From: Asparagopsis taxiformis
Lineage: Eukaryota; Rhodophyta; Florideophyceae; Bonnemaisoniales; Bonnemaisoniaceae
NCBI GenBank assembly: GCA_030407315.1
Contig: JALQPE010001931.1
Span: 1-64,000, forward strand
Reading direction: 5' to 3'
Length of the DNA stretch: 64,000 nucleotides
The translations under genes and the position numbers were made by a program. The notes below the pieces were generated by a model. The model was not told the DNA's origin. It made no database searches and saw only the letters and a program-made list of their open reading frames with translations. Positions 1,445 through 45,493 of this stretch are shown here, piece after piece (position 1 is the first letter of the stretch; every line of letters starts with the position of its first letter).

Positions 1445-3994
1445 ATGCCACGCCCTATGCCGACGTGGGCGGAGTTGGGCCGTCGCCACTTCTTCCCGCA
1501 GCGCTTTCAATGGACGCGCATCGCTGACGTATCGCGCTATGCCGTTTTACCCGGCCACAAGGACGCGCAAGCGGTGTGGGACGCGCGGCGCGAATCGGCG
1601 TCGTGTGACTTGGCGGTCCCCGCGAACTTACCGTGCGACGCGTACTTTCTCGAGGACGAAGCCGACGAACGACTCGTACGCCACCTGGCCCGGTTGCGCG
1701 TGATGCGTCGCGACGAATTTGCGCGAGTCGATCCATGGGCCGCGGCGCCCAGTGCGGGCTTCTTACTTGACGGCGGCGTTCCGTGGAACGACGTGAGCAC
1801 GAAGGGGAGGCGAGCGTGCCATGGTTTCTTAACGCGGATATGCGCCCGGAAGCGCGGCGCGAGTTGCGTTTTGCGGCGCACGTCGGGCTACTTCGTTACG
1901 TATCGCGATATCGAATTTCGCGAGTTTCCTGATGACCGCGTCGCCGCTTTCTTCCCGCGTTACGATGCGCGAGATTGGCCGGAAGCGCCCGACTCGTTGT
2001 CGGTGCCGCTCCCCTGCGTGTTCCACTACGCGCCGTCGGTATTGCTCGGGCGCGACGTTCCGGTCGAGGCTCGTTCGTATTTCTGGGCTATCGCTCTGAG
2101 CGAGTGGGTGGTGATGGTTGCCGCTGCGTGGCTTCACGTCGCTTACGTCGAGCGCCGCTTCTTGCGCTTGAACGAGAAATTGATCGCGGGAATCGAGCGC
2201 GTCGGCGTTTCGGCGATCGTGCGGGGCGGAACGTATACGGCGGCGCATCTCGAAAGTCTCTTGACGGAGCATCGCGCGTGCGCGTGGGACGAAACTCCGG
2301 TTTTCGACCTCGCGCCTGGTATGGACTTCAAGGAGGGCGGGCAATGGTTGCCCTGGAGCGCGGAGCGCGGCGTCGTCGACTGGGCGCATGGTTCGCTTGG
2401 CGTGCACCGGCACACCGAAATTCCACATCTCCTTCTCAAGTCGCCGCGCAATCCGTCGCGCGACGCGTTTGCGCATTTAGAGGCGCGCGATGTCGTTACC
2501 GTTGATGCCGTGTTGTCCGCGCTATCAACTAACGAACTGCACGTTATGCGCGCGACCGATTCGCGCGAGTATGCGCAGTATCTTGGCATGGCGGCTTTGT
2601 TGGCGATCGAACGTCGGCGCTTCCGAGACGGCCGATATTCTCTTTTCTCCGAGCCACCGCGCGCTCCTATCGACGTCGAGCGACTCGACGCGGCGCTGCG
2701 CGCGGAGTACGTGAAGGTTTACAACGAGTTGCAGGCCTTGAAAGCGGCGTCTTCCGTTCACGGCGGGCCTGCAGCGTTCAGCAGTGCGGGCGACGGCGGG
2801 GCGGCGGTCAGCAGCGCGGCGAAGAGCGGCGCGGGTGACGGTGCTGCTGCGGGCAGCCGCGCGGGCGCAGGCGACGCAACGGCTGATAACGTGGCGGAAA
2901 GTGACGCGGCGGCCGTTGTCAACGAGGCGGGTGATGTTTTGGCCGAATCAGACGCGAACGTGTTGCGGGACCGGCTTGCCGCCGCCGAAAAGGGCCGGGA
3001 GGAGGCGTTGGCGCGCGTGGCATTGCTCGAAGGGGCTCGCGATGACGCTTTGGCGCGAATGGCTTCCGCCGTGGAGGGCCGCAGCGAAGCGCTGGCGCGT
3101 CTGACATCGGTCGAGCAGAGCCGTGACGAGGCGCTGGCGCGGGTGACGACGATTGCGCAAGCGCGCGACGACGCTGCGGCGCGCCTTACCAAAGCGAACG
3201 CAACGCGCGACGAAGCGGTGAGTCTCGTGCACGAGGCTGAGAAGACACTTAAGGACGCGGCTGGACGCGAGGCGACGTTAGAGCGCAAGGTCGGGGAAGA
3301 TGCGACGCGGATCGAGCGGATGCACAAGGACATCGGTGACTTGCAAGAGCGCGTGGCGAATTACGAGCGGGCTGCCAGCGGAAATCGCGCGATGATCACG
3401 ACCCTCCAAGAGCGCTGCGAGGCTGCTACTTCGGCGCAGGAACGAGCGGAACGCGCGCTTAGCGATTTCGAAGCGAACCTCGCGGGCGAACGTCAACGGG
3501 GCGCGGAGCGTGTTGCGGCGGTGCGTCGGGTGTATACTGCGCGTGAACGGGAGACCGTTCGTAGGATCCAGGATACGATCGAGCGCACGCATCGCCTCGG
3601 CACGACGCTGAATGATATCGTTGGCTTAGTGCAGCGGTCGCCCGAAACGTCCGCGGCGGGGGTGGTGTCTAACAGCGAGACGCAGTCGGTCAGCGGACTT
3701 AACGAGGGAGCGGAAGGGGGAGGTGATGCATCGGTCGCGGTGGGAAGCGACGGGGCTGGTCGCGGAGGTGCGCGCCCAACGACTCGCGCTCGCGCGGCGG
3801 CCGCAGCGTCCGCACGTCCCAGCGTTCCTCCCTTGCGTCTTGGCGTGCAAGACGGGCGCGTCGTGCGCGTGCTGAATCCCGAGCGACGACGCAATCACCA
3901 AGCAGACACGGCTTCAAGTCGTGCTCGCGCGCGCGGCGCAACGGGCAGTTCTTCGAGCCGACGCACGCGCCGCGAGGATAACGCACGCGAGTGA
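1445..3994 (+). CDS. Antisense accessory protein of element A (849 aa)
   Basis: Long ORF on the strand opposite to gag-pol, between pol and the 3' LTR. I recognise no named family. Residues about 58-230 contain segments also found in the accessory proteins of elements B and E: VPANLPCD near 58-65 and an FHY segment near 193-195, followed by acidic/aromatic helices and an ERRF motif. Residues about 503-680 form a long heptad-like coiled coil rich in E, A, R and D. The C-terminus is Ser/Arg-rich and basic. The start is the ATG at 1445; the same frame is open back to about 1265 without another ATG, and a separate ATG ORF at 1036-1281 lies just upstream in another frame, so an upstream spliced exon is possible. 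Function unknown; long retention beside pol suggests selection. Confidence 0.8.
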   Translation: MPRPMPTWAELGRRHFFPQRFQWTRIADVSRYAVLPGHKDAQAVWDARRESASCDLAVPANLPCDAYFLEDEADERLVRHLARLRVMRRDEFARVDPWAAAPSAGFLLDGGVPWNDVSTKGRRACHGFLTRICARKRGASCVLRRTSGYFVTYRDIEFREFPDDRVAAFFPRYDARDWPEAPDSLSVPLPCVFHYAPSVLLGRDVPVEARSYFWAIALSEWVVMVAAAWLHVAYVERRFLRLNEKLIAGIERVGVSAIVRGGTYTAAHLESLLTEHRACAWDETPVFDLAPGMDFKEGGQWLPWSAERGVVDWAHGSLGVHRHTEIPHLLLKSPRNPSRDAFAHLEARDVVTVDAVLSALSTNELHVMRATDSREYAQYLGMAALLAIERRRFRDGRYSLFSEPPRAPIDVERLDAALRAEYVKVYNELQALKAASSVHGGPAAFSSAGDGGAAVSSAAKSGAGDGAAAGSRAGAGDATADNVAESDAAAVVNEAGDVLAESDANVLRDRLAAAEKGREEALARVALLEGARDDALARMASAVEGRSEALARLTSVEQSRDEALARVTTIAQARDDAAARLTKANATRDEAVSLVHEAEKTLKDAAGREATLERKVGEDATRIERMHKDIGDLQERVANYERAASGNRAMITTLQERCEAATSAQERAERALSDFEANLAGERQRGAERVAAVRRVYTARERETVRRIQDTIERTHRLGTTLNDIVGLVQRSPETSAAGVVSNSETQSVSGLNEGAEGGGDASVAVGSDGAGRGGARPTTRARAAAAASARPSVPPLRLGVQDGRVVRVLNPERRRNHQADTASSRARARGATGSSSSRRTRREDNARE

Positions 3995-5317: not shown

Positions 5318-8300
5318 TCAATTGCGCGGTGCATGCGAAGGCGCCCGTCGACTCGCGATGCGCGCGCTCGCGCGGCTAGGTGCCGTTATACGTGGGGCGT
5401 CGCCGCGTGCCGGTCGCTTTCTGCGATTGCGCGGTGACGTGGCGTCAATCTCGGCGTTGCGCGCAGTGTTTTCAGAGGCGGCGCGTCCGCGGTCGCGGCG
5501 GAAACGGGCAACGATGGGCGCGGGTAGCGAACTTTCGGGCTCCCAAGTGTCGTCGCGCGGAGAGAAGCCCTTCCAGCGTACACGGAATACGGGCGCTCCG
5601 GTGTCGTCGACGCCTTCAGCCGTCAGTTTGTCAATCATGAACTCCCGCGTTCCATATCCTGCTTCAGGATTGACTTTGCGTGCGTCATCAAGTACGCGTT
5701 CGTCACGTCGCGCTGCGTCGCTTGTGTCCTCCGCGTCAGTCGCCCCTTCTTCGCCGCTTGGCGTAACCGGCGCGCGCGTCGCGTTGCGCGGTGCTAGGCG
5801 AATACGGTCGGAGCTGACGAGTTCGGGCACACCGTCGATTATGATTTCGTAAGTGTGCCCGCGGCAGCTTGTGACCGGGAAGGGTCCCGACACGGGATAG
5901 TCCAACTTCGAAGGGCGCGTTCCGTCGTCGCGCTGCGTTCGTGTCGTCGCTCCCGCGCGAGTGTCCAGATATACCTGGTCGCCAACCTTGATGCTCTTGT
6001 TCACCGTGCGTGCGCCGCGATCGAAGTCGCGTTTGTATCTCGCTTGCGCTTTCTTCAGCGCGTTCGCGGCGCGCGCGTACGCGTCGGATAGCTTCGCAAG
6101 AAACTCCATGCGGAGGAACGGCGTGCTGCGAATCGTGTCGACCTGCTCCGTCCCCAGCGATACGGGGTAGCGCGTTAGCGTGAGTTCGAACGGCGACGTA
6201 TTTGTCGAGCGGTGTATCGCGCGGTTGTATGCGTACGCCAGCGCGTCTAGGTGCTCGTCCCAATCCTTTCGCTCTTCGTCGACGTAATGGCGCAGCGTCG
6301 CGACGATAGTACGGTTCATACGCTCGACCTGCCCGTTCGACTGCGGGTGATAGGTAGTCGTGAATATGTTACGCGTTCCCATTAGCGCGCACTTTTCCTG
6401 AAACAGCTTCGAGCGGAACTGCGGTCCGTTATCTGAAAGTAGCGTGCGCGGCGGTCCGTAAACGAAGACCCAATCTCGGCAAAACGCTTTTGCAACGGCG
6501 AGCGCGGATACGCGTCCGAGCGCGATGAGTCGACAGAGCTTGCTGTAGCGATCGGCGATTACGAGTACGAAGCGGCGTTGGCGCGGGGTCTCGGGCAGCG
6601 GTCCCAGAATATCGATAGCGACGTCTTCGAGCGGGCGCGTGGCGGGGAATAGCTTCAGGGCGTTCGTATGGCGATATTGCGTAACGCGGTTGCGCGCGCA
6701 CGCATCGCATTGTCTCACCGTGGTGTAGACGTCTACGCTCATCATCGGCCAGTAATACGCACGTCGAATTGCGTCGTACATGCGTCGCGCGCCCGGGTGC
6801 CCTGCAGTTACCGCGTAATGGTTCGCTCGCAGAATACGTCCTTTTATCGCTTCGGGCACAACTATCTGCGTCGCGTCGTCGAGCGGAGCGGTCCTCATTA
6901 GTATCCCGTCGGGGGACAGGTGGAAGCGTGAACGCGGCGCGGTTTCGACGTCGCGCTTCGCGTTCTGGCAGAATTCGTCCGTCGCTTGTTCTCGGATCCA
7001 CTCGTCAGTGGACACGGGCGGTTCGATGCACGACCGAGTTGCCAGTAGGCAGTCCAAGCTCGGGTAGTATTCTGCGTAGTCGCATAGTAGCGCGGTATCG
7101 GTTCGCGCATAAGCGTCCGCGTGCGGTTCGACGATATTCGTGGCGTCGAAGCAGGGTATCTCGTCCGGTATGACCGTCTCGTCGCAGCTTCGCGTGGCCA
7201 TTCGCGAGAGCGCGTCGGCGATAACGTGGCGTTTTCCCTTCTTGTATTCGACGTCGAATTCGAACTCGGCGAGTCGCAATCTCCAGCGCGCGAGTCGTCC
7301 TTCTGCGGATGTCATGTTCAGGATCCAACGCAACGAATTATGGTCGGTGCGAACCGTGAACTTTCGTCCTTCTAAATATGCGCTTAATAGCAAGACTGCC
7401 CATACGACAGCGAGGCACTCGCGTTCCGTCGTCGAATAGTTGCGCTCCGCGTCGTTAAGCGTGCGCGACCAGTATCCGACTGGATGTAGTACGTCGTCGT
7501 CCGCATCTAGCTGAAGTAGCGCGCATCCGATTTGCCCTTGCGACGCGTCTGTATCGAGCACATACGGGTGTCCTTCGCGCGGTAGACGGAGGATTGGCGG
7601 AGACAACATTGCTTGTCGCAATGATTCGAACGCGCGCGTTTGCTCCGGCGTCGGCGCGGGTAAGTTGTCTCCTTGGTCCTTCTTTAGTAACTGCGTAAGC
7701 GGCGCCGCGACGAACGCGAATTTTTCGACGAATCGGCGGTACACGTTGCAAGTTCCTAGGAAACTTCGCAGCTGCGTCTTCGTCGTCGGGTACGTCGCAT
7801 CGCGCAGCGCGTCGCACCTCGTCGTCGGCACGGAGAGCTTCCCAGGCGAAATAGTATGTCCCAAGTAGTCCACCGAGCGTTTGAAGAACTCAGTCTTCGC
7901 GAATTTCAGCGAAACGCCTGCGCGTCCGAGGATTCCCAGTATCTCGTCGACGTGGTGCACGTGCGCGTTTACGTCAGCGGAGAAGATGGTTACGTCATCC
8001 AGGTAGACAAGGCAATGTTGCCACTTCACGTTCGCGAGCAAAATGTCGAGCGCGCGCTGAAACGTCGCGGGCGCGTTCGACAGTCCGAAAGGCATGCGGC
8101 GAAAGCGGTACGTACCGACGTGCGACGTAAACGTAGTCTTATCGCGGTCGGCGTGCGCTACCGGGATTTGCCAGTATCCCGAATTACAGTCCAGTGTAGT
8201 GAAAACCGTCGCGTTACCGAGCGAATCGACGCAGTCGTCCATGCGCGGAATCGGATACGCGTCCTTCACGGTAGCGGCGTTCAAGCGGCGGTAGTCGATG

Positions 8301-9178
8301 CAGAAGCGGGAGGTCCCGTCCTTCTTAGGCACGACCACGACCGGGCTCGCCCATTCCGACGTAGCGGGTTCGATTACCCCAGCGCGGAGCATCTTCTCCA
8401 CTTGCGTACGGATAATTTCGCGCGACGCGTGTCCGGCGCGATACGGCGGTTGGTTCACGGGGGTCGCCCCCGGAACCAGCTCGATGCGGTGCTCCGTCGG
8501 GTGAATGGCTCCCAGCGTGCCGCTCCACATGCGCTCATGCTTTCGTAGCATCTCGATAATTTCCGCGTGCAGGTCGTCGTTTACTCGCTCGTCGCGTAGC
8601 GTCGCGCGTAAGAGTTCTTCCCAAGACGGCGTCGCGCTCGCAGTTTCGTCGGTCTCGCGCGGGTCCGGCGGTGTCGTAACGTTGCGTCGCGTCGCGTCGT
8701 CGGGCGGTCGGTCTTGCGGGTCCGGCGCTTCCTGAGCGACTTGTAGACATCCCACGGGGTTGGGCACGGCGGTGCCTACCTTCATGCCTTTGGGCAATAC
8801 TTGTAGACGAGTGCCAGCGTTGTGTACCTGTACTCGGAAGGGTACATTCCTTCGAACCAGCGTCTCCCCGTTGGTTAAACGGAGTAGTTTCTGCGCGTAG
8901 AGGTTAGTCGCGGGAACTATGATGCAGCGCCCTTCAGCGCTCGTGGTAACGTCGATCGCTTGCGTCGCGTTCGGCGGAATCGATGTGCGGCGCGCAGCGC
9001 GAATAGGCGCGAAGCTTGTGGGTCGGGTCGTCTTCGCGGTCGGCGCGCGGCGCGGTTTCGTCGGCGTACGCGGAAGCATCGGGACGTGGTCGCCATAGCG
9101 GGTTCGCAACGCGCGCTGCGGTCCAGTGTAGATAATCTCGACTACGCGGTCGATGAAGTCTGCTCCCAAGATACATGG
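5318..9178 (-). CDS. pol: Pol of element A, main part (end of PR, RT, RNase H, integrase, chromodomain)
   Basis: Reverse transcriptase, RNase H and integrase of a Ty3/gypsy element. Counting from the first in-frame ATG (9187, inside the inserted LTR), RT starts near residue 265 and has YLDD near 394; RNase H has VLDTDAS near 544 and TERE; the integrase zinc finger (HYAVTAGH, CDAC) is near 790-835; catalytic residues lie in IDILGPL, LLSDNGPQF and NGQVERMN; a GPF module is near 1100 and a chromodomain (RVRWKGF, DTWEPES) near 1180-1225, followed by a basic Arg/Ala-rich tail. No stop or frameshift occurs within it. The true N-terminal half of the protease is cut off by the solo LTR at 9179-9661; on either side of that insertion the frames join exactly if LTR and one TSD copy are removed. 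Confidence 0.95.
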   Translation of the reverse strand, partial: PCILGADFIDRVVEIIYTGPQRALRTRYGDHVPMLPRTPTKPRRAPTAKTTRPTSFAPIRAARRTSIPPNATQAIDVTTSAEGRCIIVPATNLYAQKLLRLTNGETLVRRNVPFRVQVHNAGTRLQVLPKGMKVGTAVPNPVGCLQVAQEAPDPQDRPPDDATRRNVTTPPDPRETDETASATPSWEELLRATLRDERVNDDLHAEIIEMLRKHERMWSGTLGAIHPTEHRIELVPGATPVNQPPYRAGHASREIIRTQVEKMLRAGVIEPATSEWASPVVVVPKKDGTSRFCIDYRRLNAATVKDAYPIPRMDDCVDSLGNATVFTTLDCNSGYWQIPVAHADRDKTTFTSHVGTYRFRRMPFGLSNAPATFQRALDILLANVKWQHCLVYLDDVTIFSADVNAHVHHVDEILGILGRAGVSLKFAKTEFFKRSVDYLGHTISPGKLSVPTTRCDALRDATYPTTKTQLRSFLGTCNVYRRFVEKFAFVAAPLTQLLKKDQGDNLPAPTPEQTRAFESLRQAMLSPPILRLPREGHPYVLDTDASQGQIGCALLQLDADDDVLHPVGYWSRTLNDAERNYSTTERECLAVVWAVLLLSAYLEGRKFTVRTDHNSLRWILNMTSAEGRLARWRLRLAEFEFDVEYKKGKRHVIADALSRMATRSCDETVIPDEIPCFDATNIVEPHADAYARTDTALLCDYAEYYPSLDCLLATRSCIEPPVSTDEWIREQATDEFCQNAKRDVETAPRSRFHLSPDGILMRTAPLDDATQIVVPEAIKGRILRANHYAVTAGHPGARRMYDAIRRAYYWPMMSVDVYTTVRQCDACARNRVTQYRHTNALKLFPATRPLEDVAIDILGPLPETPRQRRFVLVIADRYSKLCRLIALGRVSALAVAKAFCRDWVFVYGPPRTLLSDNGPQFRSKLFQEKCALMGTRNIFTTTYHPQSNGQVERMNRTIVATLRHYVDEERKDWDEHLDALAYAYNRAIHRSTNTSPFELTLTRYPVSLGTEQVDTIRSTPFLRMEFLAKLSDAYARAANALKKAQARYKRDFDRGARTVNKSIKVGDQVYLDTRAGATTRTQRDDGTRPSKLDYPVSGPFPVTSCRGHTYEIIIDGVPELVSSDRIRLAPRNATRAPVTPSGEEGATDAEDTSDAARRDERVLDDARKVNPEAGYGTREFMIDKLTAEGVDDTGAPVFRVRWKGFSPRDDTWEPESSLPAPIVARFRRDRGRAASENTARNAEIDATSPRNRRKRPARGDAPRITAPSRASARIASRRAPSHAPRN

Positions 9179-9661
9179 TGTAGACATTCGAGCACTTCAA
9201 GCAATGTGGAAATATCTTGGTACAACACAACTGAAAATCAGCTGACATTATCTTCAAGCTGAAACGTTCAATAACATGAACGTTGAAATAATTAAGGGGT
9301 TGAACAAATTAGTACGTTCATACATTACTGAATCACAATGGATGTGAACCTCAGAATAGCACACAACAATGATGAACAGCTAGAATACAAAATAGTATAT
9401 TAGATAGAGAATGCTGAAGGTTGCAAGAGAGAGCATGAGGGACCATCAGCGATCATCAGCGATCATCAGAACAACTTCATCAGAGAGAGAGCAATAGCTC
9501 TTGCAAACTGAAGCAAGTGATAACTTGCCAAGATACAAGTCCATAACTTGTATACACATTAAACCTGCTGGTGATAACCAGTTTACATTCACCTGGTATT
9601 ATTACTGCCGCATTCAATCAACGCCCAACGATCGGACTGGATGTCACCGAGACAGTCTACA
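9179..9661. mobile_element. Solo LTR inserted in element A protease
   Basis: A 483-bp block, clearly more A+T-rich than its surroundings, with termini TGTAGAC and GTCTACA (7-bp inverted, TG..CA type) and a 4-bp target duplication ATGG (9175-9178 and 9662-9665). It interrupts the protease just before its conserved ILGADF segment. No internal coding region is present, so a solo LTR made by LTR-LTR recombination is the simplest reading; a short-TIR MITE is the alternative. It contains a repeated GATCATCAG motif near 9450-9470. No other copy is in this window. Confidence 0.75.
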
Positions 9662-17836: not shown

Positions 17837-18503
17837 TGTAGTATACGTGGCAATTCCGAAATTGCAAATATTTACGTTTTCCGCGGAATTCGAATTTCGG
17901 CGGATACGACCGGCGACAGCAATGAACGAACATTGCTGGCGCATGCGCGCGCGCAACCGGCACATGTGTGCAACGAACGTACTGGCAACGGCCAACGGAC
18001 CAACGGGTCCCTACGTGTGGCCCACAAGGTCCTTTCCCATTCGGGGACGTTACGAACAGTGTTTACACTGTAAAGCGATGCCATCGTGGCCATATAGGTA
18101 TTGGCATCGTGCCGGGAGGGAAAGGGGACAAGACAACGATCGAGCAACGGCTCTAGTCTACGACTGACTTCTACGTTTACGTTTACGTTTTGCCTAGCGA
18201 GGCTTCGTCTCCGTCGAGCTGCGTACTCCCTACCCATCGCCGCACGTAAGGCTGATTGCGTGTAGTGCCTCCGGGCTTGGTCGAGAGCGCCTCCGGTGAC
18301 GTGCCACCTCGTTTATTAAACGTAATCCTCGCGTGGATTGTTGCGTCGTGACGCTCGTGTCTACTCGCTAACCTATCTCTACCTTCCTACCTACCAATAC
18401 AGTCAAACACCAGCGGGTGGACTGCTCGTTTCGTTTCGTTTCGTAAGGACAGCGTGTCCACTGGCTCGTACCAGCTACTTCGTCACCGAACTATCGTTCC
18501 ACA
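17837..18503 (+). repeat. 5' LTR of element B1
   Basis: 667 bp, TGTAGTATACGTGG...CGTTCCACA. Matches 43748-44414. Contains a short (ACGTTT)n run near 18172-18190. Followed by one C and then the primer-binding site. Confidence 0.95.
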
Positions 18504-31482: not shown

Positions 31483-34400
31483 GTCACGAGCCACCCACAT
31501 CGCCTGAACCCTTACGTAAAAGGGGGACGACCGACGTCGATGATTGGTCCTCCGCAGGCTCACCGATGAACGAGAGTTACGTAAAGCTCACGGCCGCGAA
31601 GGCCAACTCGAGTCACATGACACCCGACGTGGGGGAAGAAACGAAGTCCGACGGGACGAACGAACCTCACACGAAGAGGAAGCCTCGCAGACGAGCGAGA
31701 CGCGCTACCCGGAAGCACGACGCTTCCGAGCGCGAGAAAGCCAAGCACGCGGCTTATACGAAGCGTGTCGACGCAAAAGAAGCCATACGGGCTCATACGG
31801 TGAAGCGACGAACCGCTAGCGAAGACGTAGACCGCGCGCCGGTCAGGACCGAACCGTTGGTCCTCGATGGGCATACGTGCCTACTTGCGTCGAAGCATTA
31901 TATAGTGTCCGGAACGATCGGACTAGACCTCAACGTGATGAGGGCGATTACCATCGCGATGGATACGTGCAGCGGCTACAACTTGATACGAACAAGTTTA
32001 CTACCCTACGACTGGGTCGACCGCTGTCTACGTGACGAAGAGCTACCGAAGCTCGGAGACGCCAACGGGCGACGTTTGCCTATCGAAGGCGCCATCCTGC
32101 TTCGTGTCAGGTTGGGGAACTCGCTGTTCCGCGTAAAATTCTTCGTAGCCAACACGCTGGCCGTCCCCGTTATAATGGGCACGTCGTTCATGTCGAAGCA
32201 TGTCGATGCTATACGCTGTCGAGCGCAGACAATCGACCTCCATCGGGGGGATACGATACCCATTATCGCGGAGGGCGATACGACGACTCCGTACGAGGAG
32301 GGGGAAGAGACGAATCCAAACGTGGAGCCCCCGAAACGCCGCGAGCGTAACGCGGCCTCGAATAGGCCGAGCCGAACGTTCTCGGTTCGCCTGACGAAGT
32401 ACACGCGTGTACCGGCGATGTCGCAACGGACCGTCAACGTGACGACGGATGCGACCGGACTCGTGTTCCTCGAACCGAAAGCGTCGGTGCAATTCCGGCA
32501 TGGGCTGCGCATAGCCAACGGAGTGGTCGACGTAGGACCGAGAGAGACGTTCTCTATCATCGTGTCGAACTTCACGAAGAAGGACCGCGAATTGCCGAAA
32601 GGCGCAACGATTGCGTACGCGGTACGCTCCCCGTTGGGAATCGTCCCACTCAAGCGTGAGGGCGGCGAAGCCCTCGCGAAGGTTTTGAACCTACCGCTAG
32701 TCGACGCGACGACGCGGACAAATACGACCGGGTTGGGCGACGAAACGCCAGACCCGTTGGTCAACGAAAAGGGGAACGACCCCGCCACGAATTGGCAGTC
32801 GACAATCGATTTGTCGCACCTCGACGACGAGGATTTACGAAAGCGCATCAACGAGATGCTAGCTACACATTCGTCAATGTGGACGAGCGGACGCCTCGGC
32901 GAAATCAATGCTACGGAGCATCGAATCGAACTCGAACCGGGCACGCGGCCCATACGTTCAATGCCCTATCGTCAGGGTCCGGCTTTACGTACGATAGCCG
33001 AGGAGCAGATCACGAAGATGCTCAACGAAGGGGTTATCGAACCCGCGTCCAGCGAATGGGCGTCACCAATCGTGTTGGTGCCGAAGAAGGACGGATCCTT
33101 ACGTTTCTGTGTCGATTACAGGCGTTTGAACGCGAAAACGATCGCTGATTCGTACCCGCTTCCTCGTATGGAAGATTGCCTCGATTCGTTGGGCGACGCC
33201 GCCATCTTCACGACACTCGATTGTAACGCCGGTTACTGGCAAGTGCCCGTCTCCGCCGAGGACCGTGATAAGACAACGTTTACGTCTTTCATGGGAACGT
33301 ATCGCTACGTGCGAATGCCATTCGGGCTACGAAATGCCCCCGCTACGTTTCAGCGGACGTTGGACATCATCCTCTCCGGAGTACGTTGGCAATCGTGCCT
33401 GGTCTACTTAGACGACGTAATCGTCTTTTCGAAAGACCTCGAGTCTCACCTGGGTCACGTTGACCAGGTGCTTTCCCTGCTACGCGCAGCGGGAGTAACG
33501 TTAAAGCTCACGAAGTGCTCGTTCTTTCAACCACGAGTTGACTACCTGGGGCACGTGATTACCCCAGGGAAGCTGCACGTCGCAGCTCGGAACAAGGAAG
33601 CCTTTCGTACGGCTACGTTCCCACGCGACAAGACGCAATGTCGATCGTTTTTGGGCGCGGCCAACGTTTACCGCCGTTTCGTAAAGGCGTATGCCGAGAT
33701 CGCTCGGCCACTCAACACGATGTTGAAGAAGGACGCTTCCCCCGATTGGACGAACCCAACGGACGCGCAAACGAATGCGTTCGAAACGTTGAAGACAATA
33801 CTGGTGTCGCCACCAGTATTGCACCTTCCGAAGGCGGGACGTCCGTTCATGATCGATACCGACGCGTCGGCGTATCAGCTGGGAGCTACGTTGCTCCAAC
33901 AGCAGAACGAAGATAAACCCAACGAATGGGTGCCGATTGGGTACTGGTCGAAGACCCTCAACGAAACCGAACGCGGTTACTCGGCAACGGAGCGCGAGTG
34001 TTACTCAGTCGTTTGGGCGATAACGTCGCTCCGACCCTACGTAGAGGGTCAACGATTTACCGTACGTACGGATCACGAAGCCTTACGTTGGCTGATGACG
34101 TTGACGGACGCGTCCGGACGACTACTACGATGGAGGCTACGCGTTGCCGAATTCGATTTCGAAGTCACGTACAGGCCTGGGCGCGTGCACCAGGTACCTG
34201 ACGCTTTATCACGTGTGATATCTACGTATGACGACGGTCGACCCGTCGACGATGACGTACCATCGTACGGGGACGCGGTCCTCGTGACGACTCGCAGTCG
34301 GCGACAACCCACACGAAATGGGCAAGGACGAACGACGTCCGTACGTAAAAAGGCAACGAATGCCAGGGGTCACGACGACCCGTCGAACGAGACTCGTGAT

Positions 34401-36011
34401 GAACGAACATCGGCCACGACGGCTGGCCACGATGGCCTCGAGTTCAACCGCGACGCGACGCTCGATGACGTTCTCGACGAGGAACCGGATTTCCTCGACG
34501 AACAGCGCGCTGCCGAAGACGATTCGGCACGCGTGCCACCAGCTGACGTTCAGCTTCCCATTACGAGGGACGAGCTTATCGAAGCTCAACGCGAGGACGC
34601 GTTCTGTCAAACGATACTGACACGACAGTCCGAGACGCAGGACGCTGCATTCTTCGAAGGCCACGATGGCTTACTCCGACGCCGGAACCCTCACGGTGAG
34701 GAACGTACACAAATCGTTGTGCCGGCTTCGTTACGGCCGCGGCTGCTGGAGTTAACGCACCACCACGTCCTCGCTGGACATCCCGGGCAAACGCGTATGT
34801 ACTATACCCTACGGAGGACGTACTACTGGCCCGCGATGGCCGCCGACATCCACGCAACGGTACGAAACTGCGTTGGATGTGCGAAGAACCGCGTGAAGCT
34901 TCGCAAACGGACGAACCCGTTACGTTTATTTCCGGCTACGGAGCCGCTGCGAGACCTATGTATCGACATACTAGGTCCGCTGACGAAGACCACGCGTGGC
35001 AACCGATTTATCCTCGTGATAACGGACCGCTTCACGAAGCTGACTAGAGTCGTACCTCTACGAAATATCGATTCCGCCAACGTGGCGAGCGCGTTCGTCA
35101 ACGCGTGGGTCTTCTCGTATGGACCCCCACGGACGCTCATAAGCGATAACGGAAAGCAGTTCGCTGCTAAGTTTTTCCAGCGCGTCTGCAACGAAATCGG
35201 CGTGACGAACGTCTTTACGTCGACGTACCACCCCCAAACGAACGGGCAGGTGGAGCGCTACAACAGGACGATCCTGGCGATGCTGCGCAATTACGTGAAC
35301 GAAAACCAGAACGACTGGGATCGATACGCATCGGCGTTAACGTTTGCGTACAACACGCATGTGCATTCGAGCACGGGCACGACGCCCTTCGATTTGATTC
35401 TCACGAATCCACCGCCACCGTTGGCGCTACACACGTCGGTAACGAACCGCGAACTACCCGACGGGGGAGGGCGAGCCACTTACGTTCGTGAGCTCGCCAC
35501 AACGATGGACAACGCGTATCGAACGCTGAAGGCCGCGCAGGCACGTTATAAACGAAATTTCGACAAACGAGTCCGTGTCTCGAATCGAAACATCCGCGCG
35601 GGAGAATACGTATTCATCGACCCGACGGACGGGACCACGAAGGGCACGAAGCTCGGCAACCACGCGTTGGGACCGTTCCGCGTACTACGTAACGACGTAC
35701 GAACGTTCGTCATCCAACGAGGAGACGTAGTTGAACGTGTCAACTCGGACCGCGTTGCGTACGCGCCAACGCCGGCGAACGCGCCCCCGCCGGAGCCATA
35801 CGATGCCACCGAGGCAGACCTCGACAAGAACCGCGACGGTCCAGCGTATGTAGTAGACGACCTACTCAACCACCGCGTGAACGAGGACGGAACGTTAGAC
35901 TTCCTCGTGAAGTGGGTCGGGTATCGTAACCCTACGTGGGAACCCCGCCGGAACGTATCTGAAGAGAGCGTCTCTCGATACTTCGCACGCGTGCGACGAG
36001 CAACAACGTGA
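31461..36011 (+). CDS. pol: Pol of element B2 (PR-RT-RNaseH-IN-chromodomain), intact
   Basis: Counted from the frame opening at 31422 (1529 aa): protease active-site region AMDTCSGYNLI near residue 179; RT from about 537 (VIEPASSEWASP) with YLDD near 662; RNase H MIDTDAS near 810 and TEREC; integrase zinc finger HHHVLAGH..CVGC near 1113-1150; catalytic residues in IDILGPL (1180), ISDNGKQF (1239) and NGQVERYN (1273); GPF module near 1416; chromodomain FLVKWVGYRNPTWEP near 1475-1520. Produced by -1 frameshift from gag. Oddity: the protease motif is DTC rather than DTG, also in B1. No lesion is visible. Confidence 0.96.
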   Translation, partial: GKRPGDVGHEPPTSPEPLRKRGTTDVDDWSSAGSPMNESYVKLTAAKANSSHMTPDVGEETKSDGTNEPHTKRKPRRRARRATRKHDASEREKAKHAAYTKRVDAKEAIRAHTVKRRTASEDVDRAPVRTEPLVLDGHTCLLASKHYIVSGTIGLDLNVMRAITIAMDTCSGYNLIRTSLLPYDWVDRCLRDEELPKLGDANGRRLPIEGAILLRVRLGNSLFRVKFFVANTLAVPVIMGTSFMSKHVDAIRCRAQTIDLHRGDTIPIIAEGDTTTPYEEGEETNPNVEPPKRRERNAASNRPSRTFSVRLTKYTRVPAMSQRTVNVTTDATGLVFLEPKASVQFRHGLRIANGVVDVGPRETFSIIVSNFTKKDRELPKGATIAYAVRSPLGIVPLKREGGEALAKVLNLPLVDATTRTNTTGLGDETPDPLVNEKGNDPATNWQSTIDLSHLDDEDLRKRINEMLATHSSMWTSGRLGEINATEHRIELEPGTRPIRSMPYRQGPALRTIAEEQITKMLNEGVIEPASSEWASPIVLVPKKDGSLRFCVDYRRLNAKTIADSYPLPRMEDCLDSLGDAAIFTTLDCNAGYWQVPVSAEDRDKTTFTSFMGTYRYVRMPFGLRNAPATFQRTLDIILSGVRWQSCLVYLDDVIVFSKDLESHLGHVDQVLSLLRAAGVTLKLTKCSFFQPRVDYLGHVITPGKLHVAARNKEAFRTATFPRDKTQCRSFLGAANVYRRFVKAYAEIARPLNTMLKKDASPDWTNPTDAQTNAFETLKTILVSPPVLHLPKAGRPFMIDTDASAYQLGATLLQQQNEDKPNEWVPIGYWSKTLNETERGYSATERECYSVVWAITSLRPYVEGQRFTVRTDHEALRWLMTLTDASGRLLRWRLRVAEFDFEVTYRPGRVHQVPDALSRVISTYDDGRPVDDDVPSYGDAVLVTTRSRRQPTRNGQGRTTSVRKKATNARGHDDPSNETRDERTSATTAGHDGLEFNRDATLDDVLDEEPDFLDEQRAAEDDSARVPPADVQLPITRDELIEAQREDAFCQTILTRQSETQDAAFFEGHDGLLRRRNPHGEERTQIVVPASLRPRLLELTHHHVLAGHPGQTRMYYTLRRTYYWPAMAADIHATVRNCVGCAKNRVKLRKRTNPLRLFPATEPLRDLCIDILGPLTKTTRGNRFILVITDRFTKLTRVVPLRNIDSANVASAFVNAWVFSYGPPRTLISDNGKQFAAKFFQRVCNEIGVTNVFTSTYHPQTNGQVERYNRTILAMLRNYVNENQNDWDRYASALTFAYNTHVHSSTGTTPFDLILTNPPPPLALHTSVTNRELPDGGGRATYVRELATTMDNAYRTLKAAQARYKRNFDKRVRVSNRNIRAGEYVFIDPTDGTTKGTKLGNHALGPFRVLRNDVRTFVIQRGDVVERVNSDRVAYAPTPANAPPPEPYDATEADLDKNRDGPAYVVDDLLNHRVNEDGTLDFLVKWVGYRNPTWEPRRNVSEESVSRYFARVRRATT

Positions 36012-38310: not shown

Positions 38311-40539
38311 CTAGTAGCGACGAGAACGCTTGCCCGCAGGGTCATACGGACCAGGGCCTTCGCCGCGGCTATCGTGGCTGCGGCTGCGACTGGGCTGAAC
38401 GAAGCCCGGCGCGTACGGATCGACGGTCTGCGTGACCACGGGGGCTCGCTCGCGACGAGACGCGGGATCCCTAGCGTAAGGATCCGCAGTCCCGTGACTG
38501 CGCGTATCCGAAGGGCGCGCCGGAGCGGGGTCGCGTGGCAGGTACGCCGCTGCGTGACCATACCCGACGGGGTCGCCGAAGCCGCCGCCACTCGCGTAAC
38601 CGTACGGTTCATTACGAACGCCAACGGGCGGCGCGTAACTACGAGTCGCCGCGGCGAGACGCTCGGAAATCGCGCGTTCCGTTGCCAAGCGGGCAGTCAG
38701 GTCCAACGTCTGGGCCCTGAACTCTTCGGCTGCGCGAGCCACGGACGAGATGAGGGAACGGATAACCCAGCCGTCCGCACGAGGCGGAGCGGACATCGAC
38801 GTACCGAGAAGCCGGCGGGCATCCTCATCGGAGACGCGGTCGTCCAGGCTAACGAAGCGTGGCGCGCGTTCGGCCGGCGTGGCCACACTCGGACGACTGA
38901 CCTGGGCAACGTTGCCCCCTCCCGTAGCCTCGCGTGGCACGACCTCTCGAGGACCCGGCGCACGCGGCGCTTCCTTTTGATGGCCACGACGGCCAGAACG
39001 CGTCCCTCGGGGGCGCTCGTTGCCCCCGAGGCCGCCGAAATAACCGGCACGATTGCCACGACGGCGTTCGGAACGGGAAGCGACCCGCGGCACGTAAGCC
39101 CCATCGCTACGAACGGAGACGAACTCCTGGTTATCGCCGCTTGCGTAATCGGGACGTATAACCCGATACTCCGGCCCCAATGCAAGGGCGCCGCGAACCT
39201 CAGCCAACGCGCTGGTGACGGAGACAAACGTGTCGGAACCGTCAACCGGGATTGCACGAAGCATCTCGTAATCGGCCAGGAAGTCCAACGTGGACTCCGG
39301 CAGTAGGCACGCGCGCCCGAACACACGACGTTCCACGAATAGCGAGCACGCGAGCATCGCTGCGTGTTCGATGTCCACGGCCATAAGGAAACGTTCCTTC
39401 ACGGGGGCAGGCGCGTCCTTCACGGCATCGGTGAAATAATGTACCACGCGTGGTAATAACGTGGACGACCCACGGGGGTACGGAAACTCCTCGACTACTT
39501 CCGGCAACGGCGGGAAGTAGAGCTCGCTCGGGACGACCCACGGAGCTGACGCGTGCGACACACGATAGTCGTCCGCGTTCACGTGGCGGAGAGCGAAGTG
39601 GTCATCGTACGACACGACGCTTTTGGAGATGACGCTCAACGAAAGAGCAGTCTTCCATTCGGCACGTTGCCTTTCGGAAAGTGTCCGCGGACATACGAAT
39701 ACGGACGACACCGAGATGAACGGCGGTTCCTCGGGCGTCCCCTTCCATAAGTATGCGTCCATACGGTCGACGTAGATCGCGTCGTTGACGTCACGCAACC
39801 ACGAGCGGTCGCAACGTATCGACGCCGGGATCTGGTAACGTTCCGATCCCGGCGGCCCGTTGGCGAAACGACGCCCGGCTGCTCGCCCCCACGTATCTTC
39901 GGCGGAACGCATATAGTCGACGACCGCGCGGGCGTCCAGACGATCTCTGGCCAACGTGGCGAGATCGTCATCCGTGATACCCACGCGGGGCAACGCAGCC
40001 CACGCGTGGGTCAGGACGCCTACGTTTAGCGCCGCCCCGCCACGTGAGGCGGTGCCGACCGTCCCAACGGGGTCACCACCCTCCGGCGAGGGGTCCTGGC
40101 GAGGAGAACGCGGCGAGCCATCACGACGAGGCACGCCCGTGCGGGCCGCCGCCACAGCACGACGCGAACGAGCGGCCGCTGCCATCGCGGCTACACCCGT
40201 CGACGGGGCCGCGGCATCCGGAATGATGGGTGACGAATTCCCCGAGTCGGACGCCGTTGCGTCATCATCACGTGTGGCGACGGCCCTAGCAGCCTCGGCA
40301 GGCGTCACGGAAGCCACCAGGCGAGACGGAGCCATCGGGCGAGACGAAGAGGCGACGGCCTGCGAAGCAACGGCTTCTCCCGCCCTCACGGATGGGGCGG
40401 GCGCGACGGACGCTTCCGTCGCTGGCGGCGCACCGGCCCCGACGAGGGAGGGAGCGCCCTGCGAAGGGGTTCTCGCTCCACCTCCAGCAGAGCCGGCGGG
40501 CCGCGGGGTGTTAGCATCGGTACTGCGAGTCGTAACCAT
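38311..40539 (-). CDS. Antisense accessory protein of element B2 (about 742 aa)
   Basis: Intact ORF on the strand opposite gag-pol. First ATG in frame is 40539 (MVTTRSTDANTPRPAG); the open frame continues upstream to 40683 without ATG and would encode a hydrophobic stretch (FRLARVALVVVLVALVV). Residues 1-230 are Ala/Pro/Ser/Arg-rich; the core begins near 235 with IPASIRCDRSWL, then NDAIYVDRMDAYL, VSSVFVCPRTL and VVHYFTDAVKDAPAPVKERF near 366, followed by ERRVFGRACLLPEST. A shorter helix region (AAEEFRAQTLDLTARLATER) and a Gly/Tyr then Ser/Arg tail end the protein. The core matches accessory proteins of A and E. No known family recognised. Confidence 0.85.
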   Translation of the reverse strand: MVTTRSTDANTPRPAGSAGGGARTPSQGAPSLVGAGAPPATEASVAPAPSVRAGEAVASQAVASSSRPMAPSRLVASVTPAEAARAVATRDDDATASDSGNSSPIIPDAAAPSTGVAAMAAAARSRRAVAAARTGVPRRDGSPRSPRQDPSPEGGDPVGTVGTASRGGAALNVGVLTHAWAALPRVGITDDDLATLARDRLDARAVVDYMRSAEDTWGRAAGRRFANGPPGSERYQIPASIRCDRSWLRDVNDAIYVDRMDAYLWKGTPEEPPFISVSSVFVCPRTLSERQRAEWKTALSLSVISKSVVSYDDHFALRHVNADDYRVSHASAPWVVPSELYFPPLPEVVEEFPYPRGSSTLLPRVVHYFTDAVKDAPAPVKERFLMAVDIEHAAMLACSLFVERRVFGRACLLPESTLDFLADYEMLRAIPVDGSDTFVSVTSALAEVRGALALGPEYRVIRPDYASGDNQEFVSVRSDGAYVPRVASRSERRRGNRAGYFGGLGGNERPRGTRSGRRGHQKEAPRAPGPREVVPREATGGGNVAQVSRPSVATPAERAPRFVSLDDRVSDEDARRLLGTSMSAPPRADGWVIRSLISSVARAAEEFRAQTLDLTARLATERAISERLAAATRSYAPPVGVRNEPYGYASGGGFGDPVGYGHAAAYLPRDPAPARPSDTRSHGTADPYARDPASRRERAPVVTQTVDPYAPGFVQPSRSRSHDSRGEGPGPYDPAGKRSRRY

Positions 40540-41119
40540 CGTGGTTACGCTGTACACGATAATTACGACGAGTGCAACGAGCACGACGACGAGAGCCACG
40601 CGGGCTAAACGGAACAAGAGAACGAAAGGAACGGAGGTAGTAGTACCCAGCGGGGGAAGAGGATAAGGGAGAACGAAAGGCAACGGCCTGGATGACGATG
40701 GTGAGAGGAAGGGTGAGCGACGATCGCTATCACGTTAAGCCGCCGCTTAAATATCCTTCGGACGACCGTTGTCGACATGCCCGCTGGCAGATTCACGAAA
40801 AGGCCGCGGCCTGCGCTCGTATCGCGCTGAATTGAAGCACACCCGCGTGGTGGAATTGGACACTGCATCCGTTGCAGGAAAACGCCTAAGCGAGGCATTG
40901 ACGTACGACGCCAACGGGCGGGCCGCGATGATTACGAAAGAGCCGGAGCGCACGCGCGCGCTCCGGCGCCGTGGCGATTCGATCAGCCAACCGGGCCATG
41001 TACGTTTCAACGAGATTTTTCGGGACAACTGCCACGTCCGCAGTTGTACCCGAAAAGGCGCCACGGCCCCGTGTCTCAGGCGCGTCCTGACGGGCCTCGC
41101 GTGGCCGGGACGTCCACGT

Positions 41120-41134: not shown

Positions 41135-41793
41135 TGTAGTATACGTGGCAATTCCGAAATTGCGAATAATTACGATTTCCGCGGAATTACGAATTTCCGC
41201 GGACCGAGCGGCGACAGCAATGCACGAACATTGCTGGCGCATGCGCGCGCGCAGTCGGCACACGTGTGCAACGAACGTATTGGCAACGGCCAACGGACCA
41301 ACGGGTCCCTACGTGTGACCCACAAGGTCCTTTCCCATTCGGGGACGTTACGAGCAGTGTTTACACTGTAAAGCGATGCCATCGTGGCCATATAGGTATT
41401 GGCATCGTGCCGGGAGGGAAAGGGGACAAGACAACGATCGAGCAACGGCTCTAGTCTACGACTGACTTCTACGTTTACGTTTACGTTTTGCCTAACGAGG
41501 CTTCGTCTCCGTCGAGCTGCGTACTCCCTACCCATCGCCGCACGTAAGGCTGATTGCGTGTAGTGCCTCCGGGCTTGGTCGAGAGCGCCTCCGGTGACGT
41601 ACCACCTCGTGTGCTAACGTAATCCTCGCGTGGATTGTTGCGTCGTGACGCTCGTGTCTACTCGCTAACCACTCTACCTTCCTACCTAACAATACAGTCA
41701 AAACACCAGCGGGTGGACTGCTCGTTTCGTTTCGTTAAGGACAGCGTGTCCGTGGCTCGTACCAGCTACTTCTAGAACTAACGTGGTTCCACA
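41135..41793 (+). repeat. 3' LTR of element B2
   Basis: 659 bp, matches 28317-28975; outer end ..GGTTCCACA followed by the GATAC duplication (41794-41798), after which the interrupted B1 accessory ORF resumes. Confidence 0.95.
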
Positions 41794-41798: not shown

Positions 41799-43147
41799 TC
41801 CGGCCCCAACGCGAGGGCGCCGCGAGTCTCCGCCACCACGCCGGTGACGGAAACGAACATGTCGGAGCCTTCGACCGGCATTGCACGAAGCAATTCGTAA
41901 TCTGCCAGGTAGTCCAGCGTGGACTCCGGCAGTAGGCACGCGCGCCCAAACACACGCCGCTCCACGTAGAGCGAGCAAGCGAACATCGCTGCGTGTTCAA
42001 CGTCCACCGCCGTGAGGAAACGTTCCTTCACCTCCGCAGGCGCGTCCTGCATCGTTCCGGTGAAGTAATGTACCACGCGAGGTAATAACGTAGATGACCC
42101 GCGGGGATACGGATACGCGCCTACCACGTCTGGCAGCGTCGGGAAATAATCCCTACCCGGAACACCTAGCGAGGTGGACGCGTGCGACACACGAAAGTCG
42201 TCCGCGTCGGCGTAACGGAGCGCGAAGTAGTCGTCGTACGATATGACGCGGTTGCCCATAACGCTCAACGAGAGCGCGGTTTTCCACTCGGCACGCTGCC
42301 GCTCCGTCAATGTCCGCGGACACACGTACACGGACGCCAACGCAGTGAACGGCGGTTCGTCGGGCGTCCCCTTCCATAAGTATGCGTCCATGATGTCTAC
42401 GTAGACCGCATCGTTAGCGTCGCGCAACCACGAACGGTCGCAACGAATTGACGCCGGGATCTGGTAACGTTCCGATCCCGCGGGCCCGTGGGCGAAACGA
42501 CGCCCGGCACGACGCCCCCACGAATCTTCAGCAATGCGCATGTACTCGAGTACTGCGCGTGCGTCCAAACGATCTTTGGCCAGCGTGGCCACGTCCTCGT
42601 CCGACACAGCCACCCGAGGCAGCACCGTCCACGCGTGGGATAGGGAACTCGCGTCGAGCGCGACGCCGTTGCGATCGGAGGTTCCGACGGTTCCCGTGGG
42701 AACGTCCAACCCCGACGAGTCCCGACGGGGAGACTGGGGAGAACCCTCACGACGAGGTTCGCCAGCGCGCGACGCTGCCCCGGCACGACGTAAACGAGCG
42801 GCCGCGGCCATCGCAGCCACTCCACGACCAGAGGGCACGACCTCCGGCACTATCGGTGACTCCGGACTCGAGACAGACGCCGCGGCGTCGCCATCAGTAG
42901 GGGCAGCGGCCCCTACAGCCTCGACAGGCGGAACGGGAGCCGTCGGGCGTGACGATGAGGCAACGGCCTGCGGAGCAACGGCTTGAACCGCCCCAACGGT
43001 CGGGGCGGGCGCGACGGACGCTTCCGTGGCTGGCAGCGCACCGACCCTGGCGAGGGAGGGAGCGCCCTGGGAAGGGTTCCTCGCTCCACCTCCAGCAGAG
43101 CCGGCGGGCCGCGGAGTGTTAGCATCGGTGCTACGGGTCGTAACCAT
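41799..43147 (-). pseudogene. Antisense accessory ORF of B1, N-terminal part
   Basis: N-terminal about 450 residues of the B-family accessory protein, cut by B2 at its 3' side. ATG at 43147 (MVTTRSTD) matches the B2 start; in this copy the frame also stays open upstream to another ATG at 43510, which would add a hydrophobic segment (FRLARVAFVLVLVALVV). Contains the shared core: IPASIRCDRSWLRD, NDAVYVDIMDAYL, VVHYFTGTMQDAPAEVKERF and ERRVFGRACLLPEST. The C-terminal remainder lies at 27485-28316. Confidence 0.87.
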
Positions 43148-43747: not shown

Positions 43748-44414
43748 TGTAGTATACGTGGCAATTCCGAAATTGCAAATATTTACGTTTTCCGCGGAAT
43801 TCGAATTTCGGCGGATACGACCGGCGACAGCAATGAACGAACATTGCTGGCGCATGCGCGCGCGCAACCGGCACACGTGTGCAACGAACGTACTGGCAAC
43901 GGCCAACGGACCAACGGGTCCCTACGTGTGACCCACAAGGTCCTTTCCCATTCGGGGACGTTACGAACAGTGTTTACACTGTAAAGCGATGCCATCGTGG
44001 CCATATAGGTATTGGCATCGTGCCGGGAGGGAAAGGGGACAAGACAACGATCGAGCAACGGCTCTAGTCTACGACTGACTTCTACGTTTACGTTTACGTT
44101 TTGCCTAGCGAGGCTTCGTCTCCGTCGAGCTGCGTACTCCCTACCCATCGCCGCACGTAAGGCTGATTGCGTGTAGTGCCTCCGGGCTTGGTCGAGAGCG
44201 CCTCCGGTGACGTGCCACCTCGTTTATTAAACGTAATCCTCGCGTGGATTGTTGCGTCGTGACGCTCGTGTCTACTCGCTAACCTATCTCTACCTTCCTA
44301 CCTACCAATACAGTCAAACACCAGCGGGTGGACTGCTCGTTTCGTTTCGTTTCGTAAGGACAGCGTGTCCACTGGCTCGTACCAGCTACTTCGTCACCGA
44401 ACTATCGTTCCACA
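43748..44414 (+). repeat. 3' LTR of element B1
   Basis: 667 bp, matches 17837-18503 with about two substitutions. Followed by the GCGAG duplication (44415-44419) and the resumed accessory ORF of element E. Preceded by the polypurine tract GTGGGGGTGGGGCTG. Confidence 0.95.
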
Positions 44415-44419: not shown

Positions 44420-45493
44420 GCATTTGTGCCGCGTCCGTGGTGGACAGCCGCCGAGGCGGGAGGCCCAGCTGGGCGTTCGCCTTACGCAGGACGGAGCTTC
44501 GCTCCCGTTGCTTCCTTACCACCCAGTGGTGCTGATGACTTGTACGAAAGTCAGGTCCCGATGACCGTCGCGCCTACCGCGCCAACCCCTCAGCCTGCAG
44601 CTGCCCCTTCATCCCAAGTGGGTCCCGCCATGGAGGCGCTTCTGACATCAGACCAAGGCTCTGAGCCATCCGTGAACGGTGATGATGTAGTCACGCGTCA
44701 GCCTCCTGCTGTTGATATCCTACGTGGGGAATTGTCGAGTCGCGAATTGCTATCGATTCCGCATGTGCGACGGTTGGCCGATGATCTCGGGGATGGTACG
44801 GTGGCTTCAATTTTTGCCTCTGCCAATGGGCGTTACATCGTAAGATCCGCGTTGGATGGACTCGCATTGTCGTGCATCACGTTAGCTGCTCGCTACAAAC
44901 AAGGACGCGAACAGCGTAACATCGCCCGAGAGCGTCGCCGCACAGCGGATAGGGAGGTTGAGGCCGCACGCCTGGAGGCAACAGAATTGCGAACCCGGGT
45001 TGGGGAATTAGAAGGTGAGTTGGAGGACGCCAGGCGTCTATTGCAGCAAGCAGTTATTCCCGAAGAGGGTGGCGAGGAGGCAGTTCAGCCTGGTTACTCG
45101 CGTCGTCGCGCTCGATCTCCCGATGAGGGTCTTCCCGAACGCAACGTGCGTACTCGTCTTCATTCCCCCGTGGGTGCTGCGGATGCTAGTAATCCTCTGC
45201 TTGCGCGTCTTGATGCCCGGTTGGGGTCGCCTGAGTCACCAGATGTTTCTCCGCCTCCCGCGTCCATCCCAGCAGTTGGGTTATCCGCTTCTGCGGTTGC
45301 GTCTTCGCATGGCCCTGTGCCTGCCCGTCGTCGGGGTTCTAGTGCAGTTCCGCAACGCGGTTTGCGTCGTAATCCTACCTTCGCAAGGGTTGCACCCCGC
45401 CATCCTCGTCCTTCGACGAATGTACGCGCTCCTGCCCCTACGGCACCGTCTGCCTCTCATCGGCCTCGGCCTTCTAGCCATTATCGTCGCTAA
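44420..45493 (+). pseudogene. Antisense accessory ORF of element E, C-terminal part
   Basis: Continues the reading frame of 16911-17836 exactly once B1 and one TSD copy are removed. It encodes about 358 residues: a Pro/Ala-rich part, a folded-looking segment (SRELLSIPHVRRLADDLGDG), a coiled coil (VEAARLEATELRTRVGELEG) and an Arg/Ser/Pro-rich basic tail ending before the TAA at 45493. The order core, coiled coil, basic tail is the same as in element A's accessory protein. The ORF extension left of 44420 lies in the B1 LTR and is not native. Confidence 0.8.

What the first reader, a model, noticed from the sequence alone, without database searches (positions are those of the whole stretch)
1445..45493. 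A conserved antisense accessory gene in three distinct chromovirus lineages
Elements A, B1/B2 and E each have a long ORF (about 740-1080 aa) on the strand opposite gag-pol, between pol and the 3' LTR: 1445-3994, 38311-40539 (and 27485-28316 with 41799-43147), and 15660-17836 with 44420-45493. By eye the proteins share a core: [IV]PA-x3-CD-x3-L in A and B, NDAxYVxRM in B and E, and an (F/V)HY..DAP..(R)F segment followed by ER-F motifs. They also share order: low-complexity N-terminus, core, coiled or helical part, basic Ser/Arg tail. Antisense additional ORFs are known in some plant Ty3/gypsy (Tat) elements, but I do not recognise this family. Retention across lineages suggests a selected function (antisense control of the sense RNA, nucleoprotein, or targeting).
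Basis: partly seen in the sequence, partly recalled or inferred. Interest (0 to 1): 0.88.

Follow-up and report, generated by a model that had tools for sequence, protein, structure and literature searches.

The report
Antisense accessory gene in algal retrotransposons
Several related jumping genes in what is probably a red alga's genome carry an extra, backward-facing protein gene that natural selection has kept working and that seems to change much faster than the rest of the element; its job is unknown.

Summary
The ORFs are real protein genes. In element A, 188 pairwise comparisons of 20 genomic copies give a median dN/dS of 0.16, and the other five frames average 12-25 stops. Stop-free matches: B 57 of 57 scored, E's core part 95 of 102. 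A fourth family (F), found here, has the same layout; its protein matches A's (E 7e-20). B and E cores are homologous; E has a 42%-identical relative in a metagenome. The A/F to B/E link is suggestive only (hhalign probability 10%, p 0.003; 11 of 2000 shuffles). These are not three separate chromovirus lineages: their RTs are 68-77% identical, against 41-43% for another chromovirus of the same genome. The layout is the known plant aORF-3R/eORF-3'R kind; known-family searches gave only sub-cut-off, mostly coiled-coil hits. Inner and outer B are 94-100% identical except for an island of 67-89% over the N-terminal half and core of this gene; 94 scored matches fall into two subtypes. Best reading: a fast-evolving, exchangeable, nucleic-acid-associated regulatory protein. 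Mechanism untested.

The parts
1445..3994 (+). Element A antisense accessory ORF (849 aa here; 971-988 aa in 17 of 29 other fetched copies, whose N-terminus corresponds to about window 1037-1444, which contains stops here)
2..810 (.). Element A LTR, 3' side (gag-pol on - strand)
   Evidence: 99.6% identical to 12669-13477
12669..13477 (.). Element A LTR, 5' side
5318..9187 (-). Element A pol (RT, RNase H, integrase, chromodomain)
   Evidence: Pfam PF00078, PF17917, PF17919, PF17921, PF00665, PF00385
10055..12091 (-). Element A gag-like ORF
   Evidence: no Pfam match; 33% identical to E gag over 250 aa, E 6e-32
41799..43147 (-). Outer B antisense gene, N-terminal half and core (cut by inner B)
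27485..28316 (-). Outer B antisense gene, C-terminal part
17837..18503 (.). Outer B 5' LTR; TSD GCGAG at 17832-17836 and 44415-44419
43748..44414 (.). Outer B 3' LTR
   Evidence: 99.7% identical to 5' LTR
38311..40539 (-). Inner B antisense gene (742 aa from Met; 790 aa from the upstream TTG)
   Evidence: 57 of 57 scored matches without a stop
38712..40764 (.). Divergence island between inner and outer B (67-89% identity per 159-300-base window)
28317..28975 (.). Inner B 5' LTR; TSD GATAC at 28312-28316 and 41794-41798
41135..41793 (.). Inner B 3' LTR
   Evidence: 99.2% identical to 5' LTR
31422..36011 (+). Inner B pol with chromodomain
29080..31482 (+). Inner B gag
   Evidence: Pfam PF03732 was found in the near-identical outer copy 18603-21002
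15660..17836 (+). E antisense gene, N-terminal part and core (cut by outer B)
44420..45493 (+). E antisense gene, coiled-coil-like and basic C-terminal part
50812..52737 (-). E gag (Retrotrans_gag)
   Evidence: PF03732
45800..50812 (-). E pol region (frame broken in this copy; no Pfam scan made)
14475..14545 (.). 71-bp terminal repeat of E (98.6% identical to 52815-52885; the full LTR length was not determined, the 5' LTR is probably truncated)

Best explanation
Shown: a group of related chromoviruses of a probable red alga carries a protein-coding accessory gene antisense to gag-pol, between pol and the 3' LTR, under purifying selection. Seen in the sequence: a low-complexity Ala/Pro/Ser/Thr/Gly-rich N-terminus, a core conserved within families, a coiled-coil-like segment and an Arg-rich tail. 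Inferred: it is transcribed from its own promoter in or next to the 3' LTR; the coiled coil makes it oligomeric; the basic tail binds nucleic acid; the core gives specificity for the element's own RNA or DNA. It then acts as a regulator of the element (protection from host silencing, or control or export of its transcripts). Fast divergence between families and the subtype island in B would reflect specificity changes acquired by recombination.
For: Codon-level purifying selection: A median dN/dS 0.16, pooled 0.19, residues 201-400 of the window ORF 0.05-0.06, other frames 12-25 stops per copy; B inner/outer 0.31 N part, 0.25 C part, ten inner copies pooled 0.27; two E copies 0.21. Matches without a stop, some of them partial, counted by eye: A 36 of 54, E core part 95 of 102, B 57 of 57, F 36 of 51. 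Similar layout in A, F, B and E and, from the core on, P0004; SMC-like coiled-coil hit in A, E 5.5e-6, below the curated cut-off. Fast change: RT A-B 68% and A-F 77% identical, gag A-B still found at E 1e-18, antisense proteins A-F 27% and A-B not significant by BLASTP. Island in B, dS 0.41-0.70 in its segments against 0.028 in gag; two subtypes, 26 and 68 of 94 matches. 350-bp tandem repeat in the B noncoding region, 11-bp repeat in A's.
Against: No expression, localisation or binding data. No known domain, and structure models are unusable (pLDDT 32-34). Family G, 87% identical to F in RT, shows no such ORF in the 3.5 kb examined beyond pol, in one copy, so the gene may be dispensable or that copy damaged. 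Selection is weak in the linker of A (residues 401-600, pN/pS 0.41-0.53), and the two closest pairs picked out gave dN/dS 1.10 and 0.73. The heptad scan had no control. Tail and coil fit a structural nucleoprotein equally well.
Confidence: 0.45

Rival explanations
1. Structural accessory protein: an extra Gag-like nucleoprotein that co-assembles with Gag or packages the RNA, expressed from the opposite strand.
For: Coiled-coil-like segment and Arg-rich tail in the five proteins examined.
Against: Each element of the window already has a gag ORF; Pfam PF03732 matches it in outer B and E. The antisense cores do not resemble the two gag capsid stretches tested (AF-gagB 271 of 500, BEP-gagA 245 of 500 shuffles reach the observed score). 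Antisense expression is an odd way to make a stoichiometric structural protein (inference).
Confidence: 0.2
2. The antisense RNA is what matters: noncoding control of the sense RNA, with the ORF a by-product.
For: Orientation and position; antisense transcripts as regulators are discussed for plant elements (PMC7264820, passages).
Against: Selection preserves amino acids; protein homology at 27% (A-F) and 42% (E-P0004).
Confidence: 0.07
3. Env-like or movement protein (membrane-associated).
For: Position between pol and the 3' LTR; rapid divergence. Peak 19-residue hydropathy in A and B (1.70, 1.71, both in a core helix) just passes the usual 1.6 mark (mark recalled); B's frame upstream of Met 49 reads a hydrophobic stretch.
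Against: Peaks in F, E and P0004 are 1.15-1.37; the A and B stretches hold charged residues; antisense, not sense. No TM or signal predictor was run.
Confidence: 0.07
4. Unrelated genes captured independently by A/F and by B/E.
For: A/F to B/E similarity is only suggestive; plant eORFs are said to have been acquired independently from several sources (PMC6317226, passages).
Against: Same place, strand and domain order, and one aligned PA-x3-[CS]D stretch (2 of 2000 shuffles, chosen after seeing the data), in elements of one RT group; A, B and E share a primer-site sequence (F not read there).
Confidence: 0.25

Closest known systems
Antisense aORF-3R / eORF-3'R of plant Tat/Retand elements (Grande gene23, RIRE2, Retand; Transposase_28 PF04195)
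   Same: [quoted passage not shown] some encode Smc domains; tandem repeats in the same region (PMC11963269, abstract and passages; PMC7264820, passages).
   Different: Those are non-chromoviruses of flowering plants; PF04195 does not match here; these are chromoviruses of a probable red alga.
Plant mobile domain (PF10536) eORFs of Ogre elements
   Same: Extra ORF of a Ty3/gypsy element (PMC6317226, passages).
   Different: No PF10536 match.
HTLV antisense genes (HBZ; the name is recalled)
   Same: Antisense gene of a retrovirus, with an antisense promoter in the 3' LTR (HTLV is named so in passages of PMC7264820 and PMC11963269).
   Different: No sequence comparison was made; promoter not testable here.
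VANC anti-silencing proteins of Arabidopsis VANDAL transposons
   Same: Possible analogy only: related proteins with changing targets, and targets in tandem repeats that vary between related TEs (PMC5735166, abstract).
   Different: Different class of transposon (recalled: DNA transposons); no sequence comparison was made.

Membership tests
Antisense additional ORF (aORF-3R / eORF-3'R) as a structural class | ORF of at least 250 codons, between pol and 3' LTR, antisense to gag-pol | tested here: met
   Read by eye from capped lists: an F ORF lies within 10 kb of an RT on 12 contigs, on the opposite strand and downstream in 12 of 12. For E there are 7 such contigs, 7 of 7 on the opposite strand, 4 downstream and 3 on the upstream side of an RT of another score class (neighbouring element, inferred)
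Antisense additional ORF (aORF-3R / eORF-3'R) as a structural class | Present in most copies of the family | tested here: inconclusive
   Many copies of A, B, E, F carry it, but total element numbers were not counted and the lists are lower bounds; absent in the one G copy examined
Transposase_28 (PF04195) proteins of Retand | Match to PF04195 | tested here: not met
   not among the hits for A, B, E, F or P0004 with the limit at E 10 (HMMER's filters drop most weak matches)
Plant mobile domain proteins (PF10536) | Match to PF10536 | tested here: not met
   same limit
Chromovirus (Ty3/gypsy) | Chromodomain at the C-terminus of integrase, RT-RH-IN order | tested here: met
   A and inner B pol: PF00078, PF17917, PF00665, PF00385 in order; E and F chromodomain by eye only
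HTLV-type antisense gene | Antisense promoter in 3' LTR | not testable with these tools
   no RNA data
VANC-type anti-silencing protein | Binds motifs in its own element and causes loss of silencing | not testable with these tools
   only an analogy

The most novel reading that the evidence does not exclude
A previously undescribed family of retrotransposon proteins, encoded antisense, works as the specificity module of each element, recognising its own nucleic acid to escape silencing or exclude relatives, and is swapped between elements by recombination while gag-pol stays nearly constant.
Probability: 0.2. Interest if true: 0.85.

Novelty: new variant of a known kind. Interest (0 to 1): 0.58.

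Why it matters
In the papers seen here, antisense accessory genes of LTR retrotransposons are described from flowering-plant non-chromoviruses, with function unknown. Here the kind occurs in chromoviruses of a probable red alga, in many stop-free, very similar copies and with clear purifying selection, so it either arose more than once or is old. The contrast of almost constant gag-pol with a discrete variable island in the accessory gene gives a direct handle on what the protein recognises.

Tried and rejected
Noncoding or chance ORF: rejected by codon-level selection and stop counts; of the five other frames one, on the opposite strand, also has pN/pS below 1 (0.27) but carries 12.4 stops per copy. 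Known domains: Pfam, NCBIfam, PHROGs and PDB sequence searches gave sub-cut-off hits only, mostly to coiled coils. Structure prediction of the E/B and A/F cores gave pLDDT 32-34, so no fold search was run. Viral contigs: no relatives of E or A. Protein database: E found one relative, A one 100%-identical entry, B none. Other chromovirus families: C65 shows none of the genes in the stretch fetched; C2425 was cut off by the contig end; a region meant for another family (L058) turned out to hold B and E pieces. The island therefore rests on one complete pair plus the bimodal antisense list. Alignment A6 held a wrongly placed row (L036) and was replaced by A8; one search translated a wrong stretch of L036 and was not used. 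One search missed the A RT and included out-of-frame letters of E, and was replaced. For one search, 20 of 30 fetched A copies were used (those of equal length; 5 of the 20 hold stops). In one search the outer B C part, and the E query, run a few to about 75 codons into the inserted LTR.
Full report
What is there. The window lies in a 141.5-Mb genome. It holds 13 phycobilisome-linker matches on 10 contigs and 10 chlorophyll-binding matches on 8 contigs; together with the eukaryotic-type elements these point to a red alga (inference; no species name was available). The window holds A (2-13477), E (14475-52885, ends marked by a 71-bp repeat), outer B (17837-44414) inside E, and inner B (28317-41793) inside outer B. 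The B insertions have 5-bp target duplications (GCGAG, GATAC). The LTR pairs of A and both B are 99.2-99.7% identical, so these insertions are young. A, both B and E share the sequence TGGTCTCTCGACC just after the 5' LTR.

The antisense genes are genuine. Each lies opposite gag-pol and downstream of pol. The split ones are single genes cut by nested insertions. For A I used 20 of 30 fetched copies (equal length; 5 of them hold stops). Of 190 pairs, 188 with dS above zero give a median dN/dS of 0.16 (5th-95th percentile 0.10-0.36), pooled pN/pS 0.19; the eight pairs with the largest dS (0.38-0.41) give 0.11-0.17. Two of the eight closest pairs run high (1.10 and 0.73). Variable sites by codon position are 141, 108 and 328. 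By 100-residue block pN/pS is 0.05-0.53, lowest at 201-400, highest at 401-600. The five other frames average 12-25 stops; four of them have pN/pS 1.4-2.5 and one, on the opposite strand, 0.27. B inner against outer: 0.31 for the N part, 0.25 for the C part; ten inner copies pooled 0.27; two E copies 0.21. Matches without a stop, some partial, counted by eye from lists that are lower bounds: A 36 of 54, E core part 95 of 102, B 57 of 57, F 36 of 51.

A fourth family. Looking downstream of pol in other chromoviruses gave family F (contig C3, locus L056) with an antisense ORF of at least 1,043 aa, open at the end of the fetched stretch; 44 candidates were scored genome-wide. Its protein matches A's at 27% over 320 aa, E 7e-20. 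On 12 contigs an F ORF lies within 10 kb of an RT, on the opposite strand and downstream in 12 of 12. For E 7 of 7 such contigs have opposite strands, 4 with the ORF downstream and 3 on the upstream side of an RT of another score class.

Homology among the proteins. B-E: hhalign probability 88, E 3e-6 on full-length profiles, 63 and 7e-5 on cores, 0 of 500 column shuffles. E also has a relative, P0004, in a metagenome: 297 of 715 aligned columns identical, 42%. A-F: probability 97.7. Between A/F and B/E: hhalign probability 10%, p 0.003; score 29.1 against a maximum of 21.2 in 100 shuffles, reversed profile p 0.28; 11 of 2000 shuffles in an independent score, reversed 22.0 against 28.2. Smaller pairings were weaker: A-E p 0.33 and A-B p 0.022; on cores 0.011 to 0.56; AF-BB 54 of 500 and AF-EP 72 of 500. 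Two gag controls gave 271 and 245 of 500. The signal sits around the PA-x3-[CS]D block (2 of 2000); the rest gives 128 of 2000; that split was made after seeing the data. I therefore call the deep link suggestive.

Architecture. In A, F, B and E the first 100 residues are 56-68% Ala/Pro/Ser/Thr/Gly (P0004 starts inside the core). In all five the best heptad-like stretch lies after the core and the last 60 residues have net charge +4 to +15 (the heptad scan had no control). Peak hydropathy is 1.70-1.71 in A and B and 1.15-1.37 in the others. Known-family searches gave only hits below the curated cut-offs, the strongest an SMC coiled-coil hit for A at E 5.5e-6.

Evolution. RTs of A, B, E and F are 68-77% identical (E on a 117-aa piece of a broken copy), G is 87% identical to F, and all are 41-43% identical to the C65 chromovirus, which shows no such gene in the stretch fetched. 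The accessory protein changes faster than RT and gag. Inner and outer B are 97-100% identical in most windows and 94-97% in the LTRs and a few others (among them the tandem-repeat stretch), but drop to 67-89% in every window from 38712 to 40764, the N-terminal half and core of the antisense gene. dS of the N part is 0.41-0.70 by segment, against 0.25 in the C part and 0.028 in gag. In the scored list the N part falls into two sets with a gap: 26 of 94 matches at 87-100% and 68 of 94 at 74-75%. Recombination with a diverged relative explains this most simply (inference). I could not phase more copies.

Result against. Family G, 87% identical to F in RT, has no ORF over 165 aa and no similarity to the proteins at E 1 in the 3.5 kb between its pol and the E piece next to it. 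One copy was seen.

How it may work. Shown: a selected protein gene. Inferred: its own antisense promoter, oligomerisation, nucleic-acid binding and element-specific regulation. Compared with the literature: the layout is the aORF-3R/eORF-3'R kind of plant Tat/Retand elements (PMC7264820 and PMC6317226, passages; PMC11963269, abstract and passages). PF04195 and PF10536 were not found here. Five searches of the paper library listed no paper whose title or abstract start names such a gene in red-algal chromoviruses; three of them listed only a part (20 of 31, 12 of 19, 12 of 118) and subscription papers are mostly not held, so this is weak evidence of novelty.

Noticed in passing
17837-44414, 28317-41793 and L058 (C1790) around 2700-3400: B elements inserted in antisense accessory genes three times: in E's gene at two different places and in another B's gene. 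Could be chance in repeat-rich DNA or a preference.
   Followed up: partly
37253-37951 and 4427-4502: Tandem repeats (350 bp x2 in inner B, where outer B is shorter; 11 bp x7 in A) in the noncoding stretch between pol and the 3' end of the antisense gene.
   Followed up: partly
56680-59979 with repeats at 54649-55650 and 60151-62425: A 1,099-aa ORF with no Pfam match, flanked on both sides by related copies of a roughly 500-bp repeat.
   Followed up: no
L057 (C2451) 1594-5142: Family G, close to F by RT, has no long antisense ORF in the examined stretch beyond pol.
   Followed up: partly
L039 and L042: Two E antisense genes differ far more in residues 761-1088 (dS 0.51) than in the first 340 residues (0.09), another mosaic-like pattern.
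   Followed up: partly
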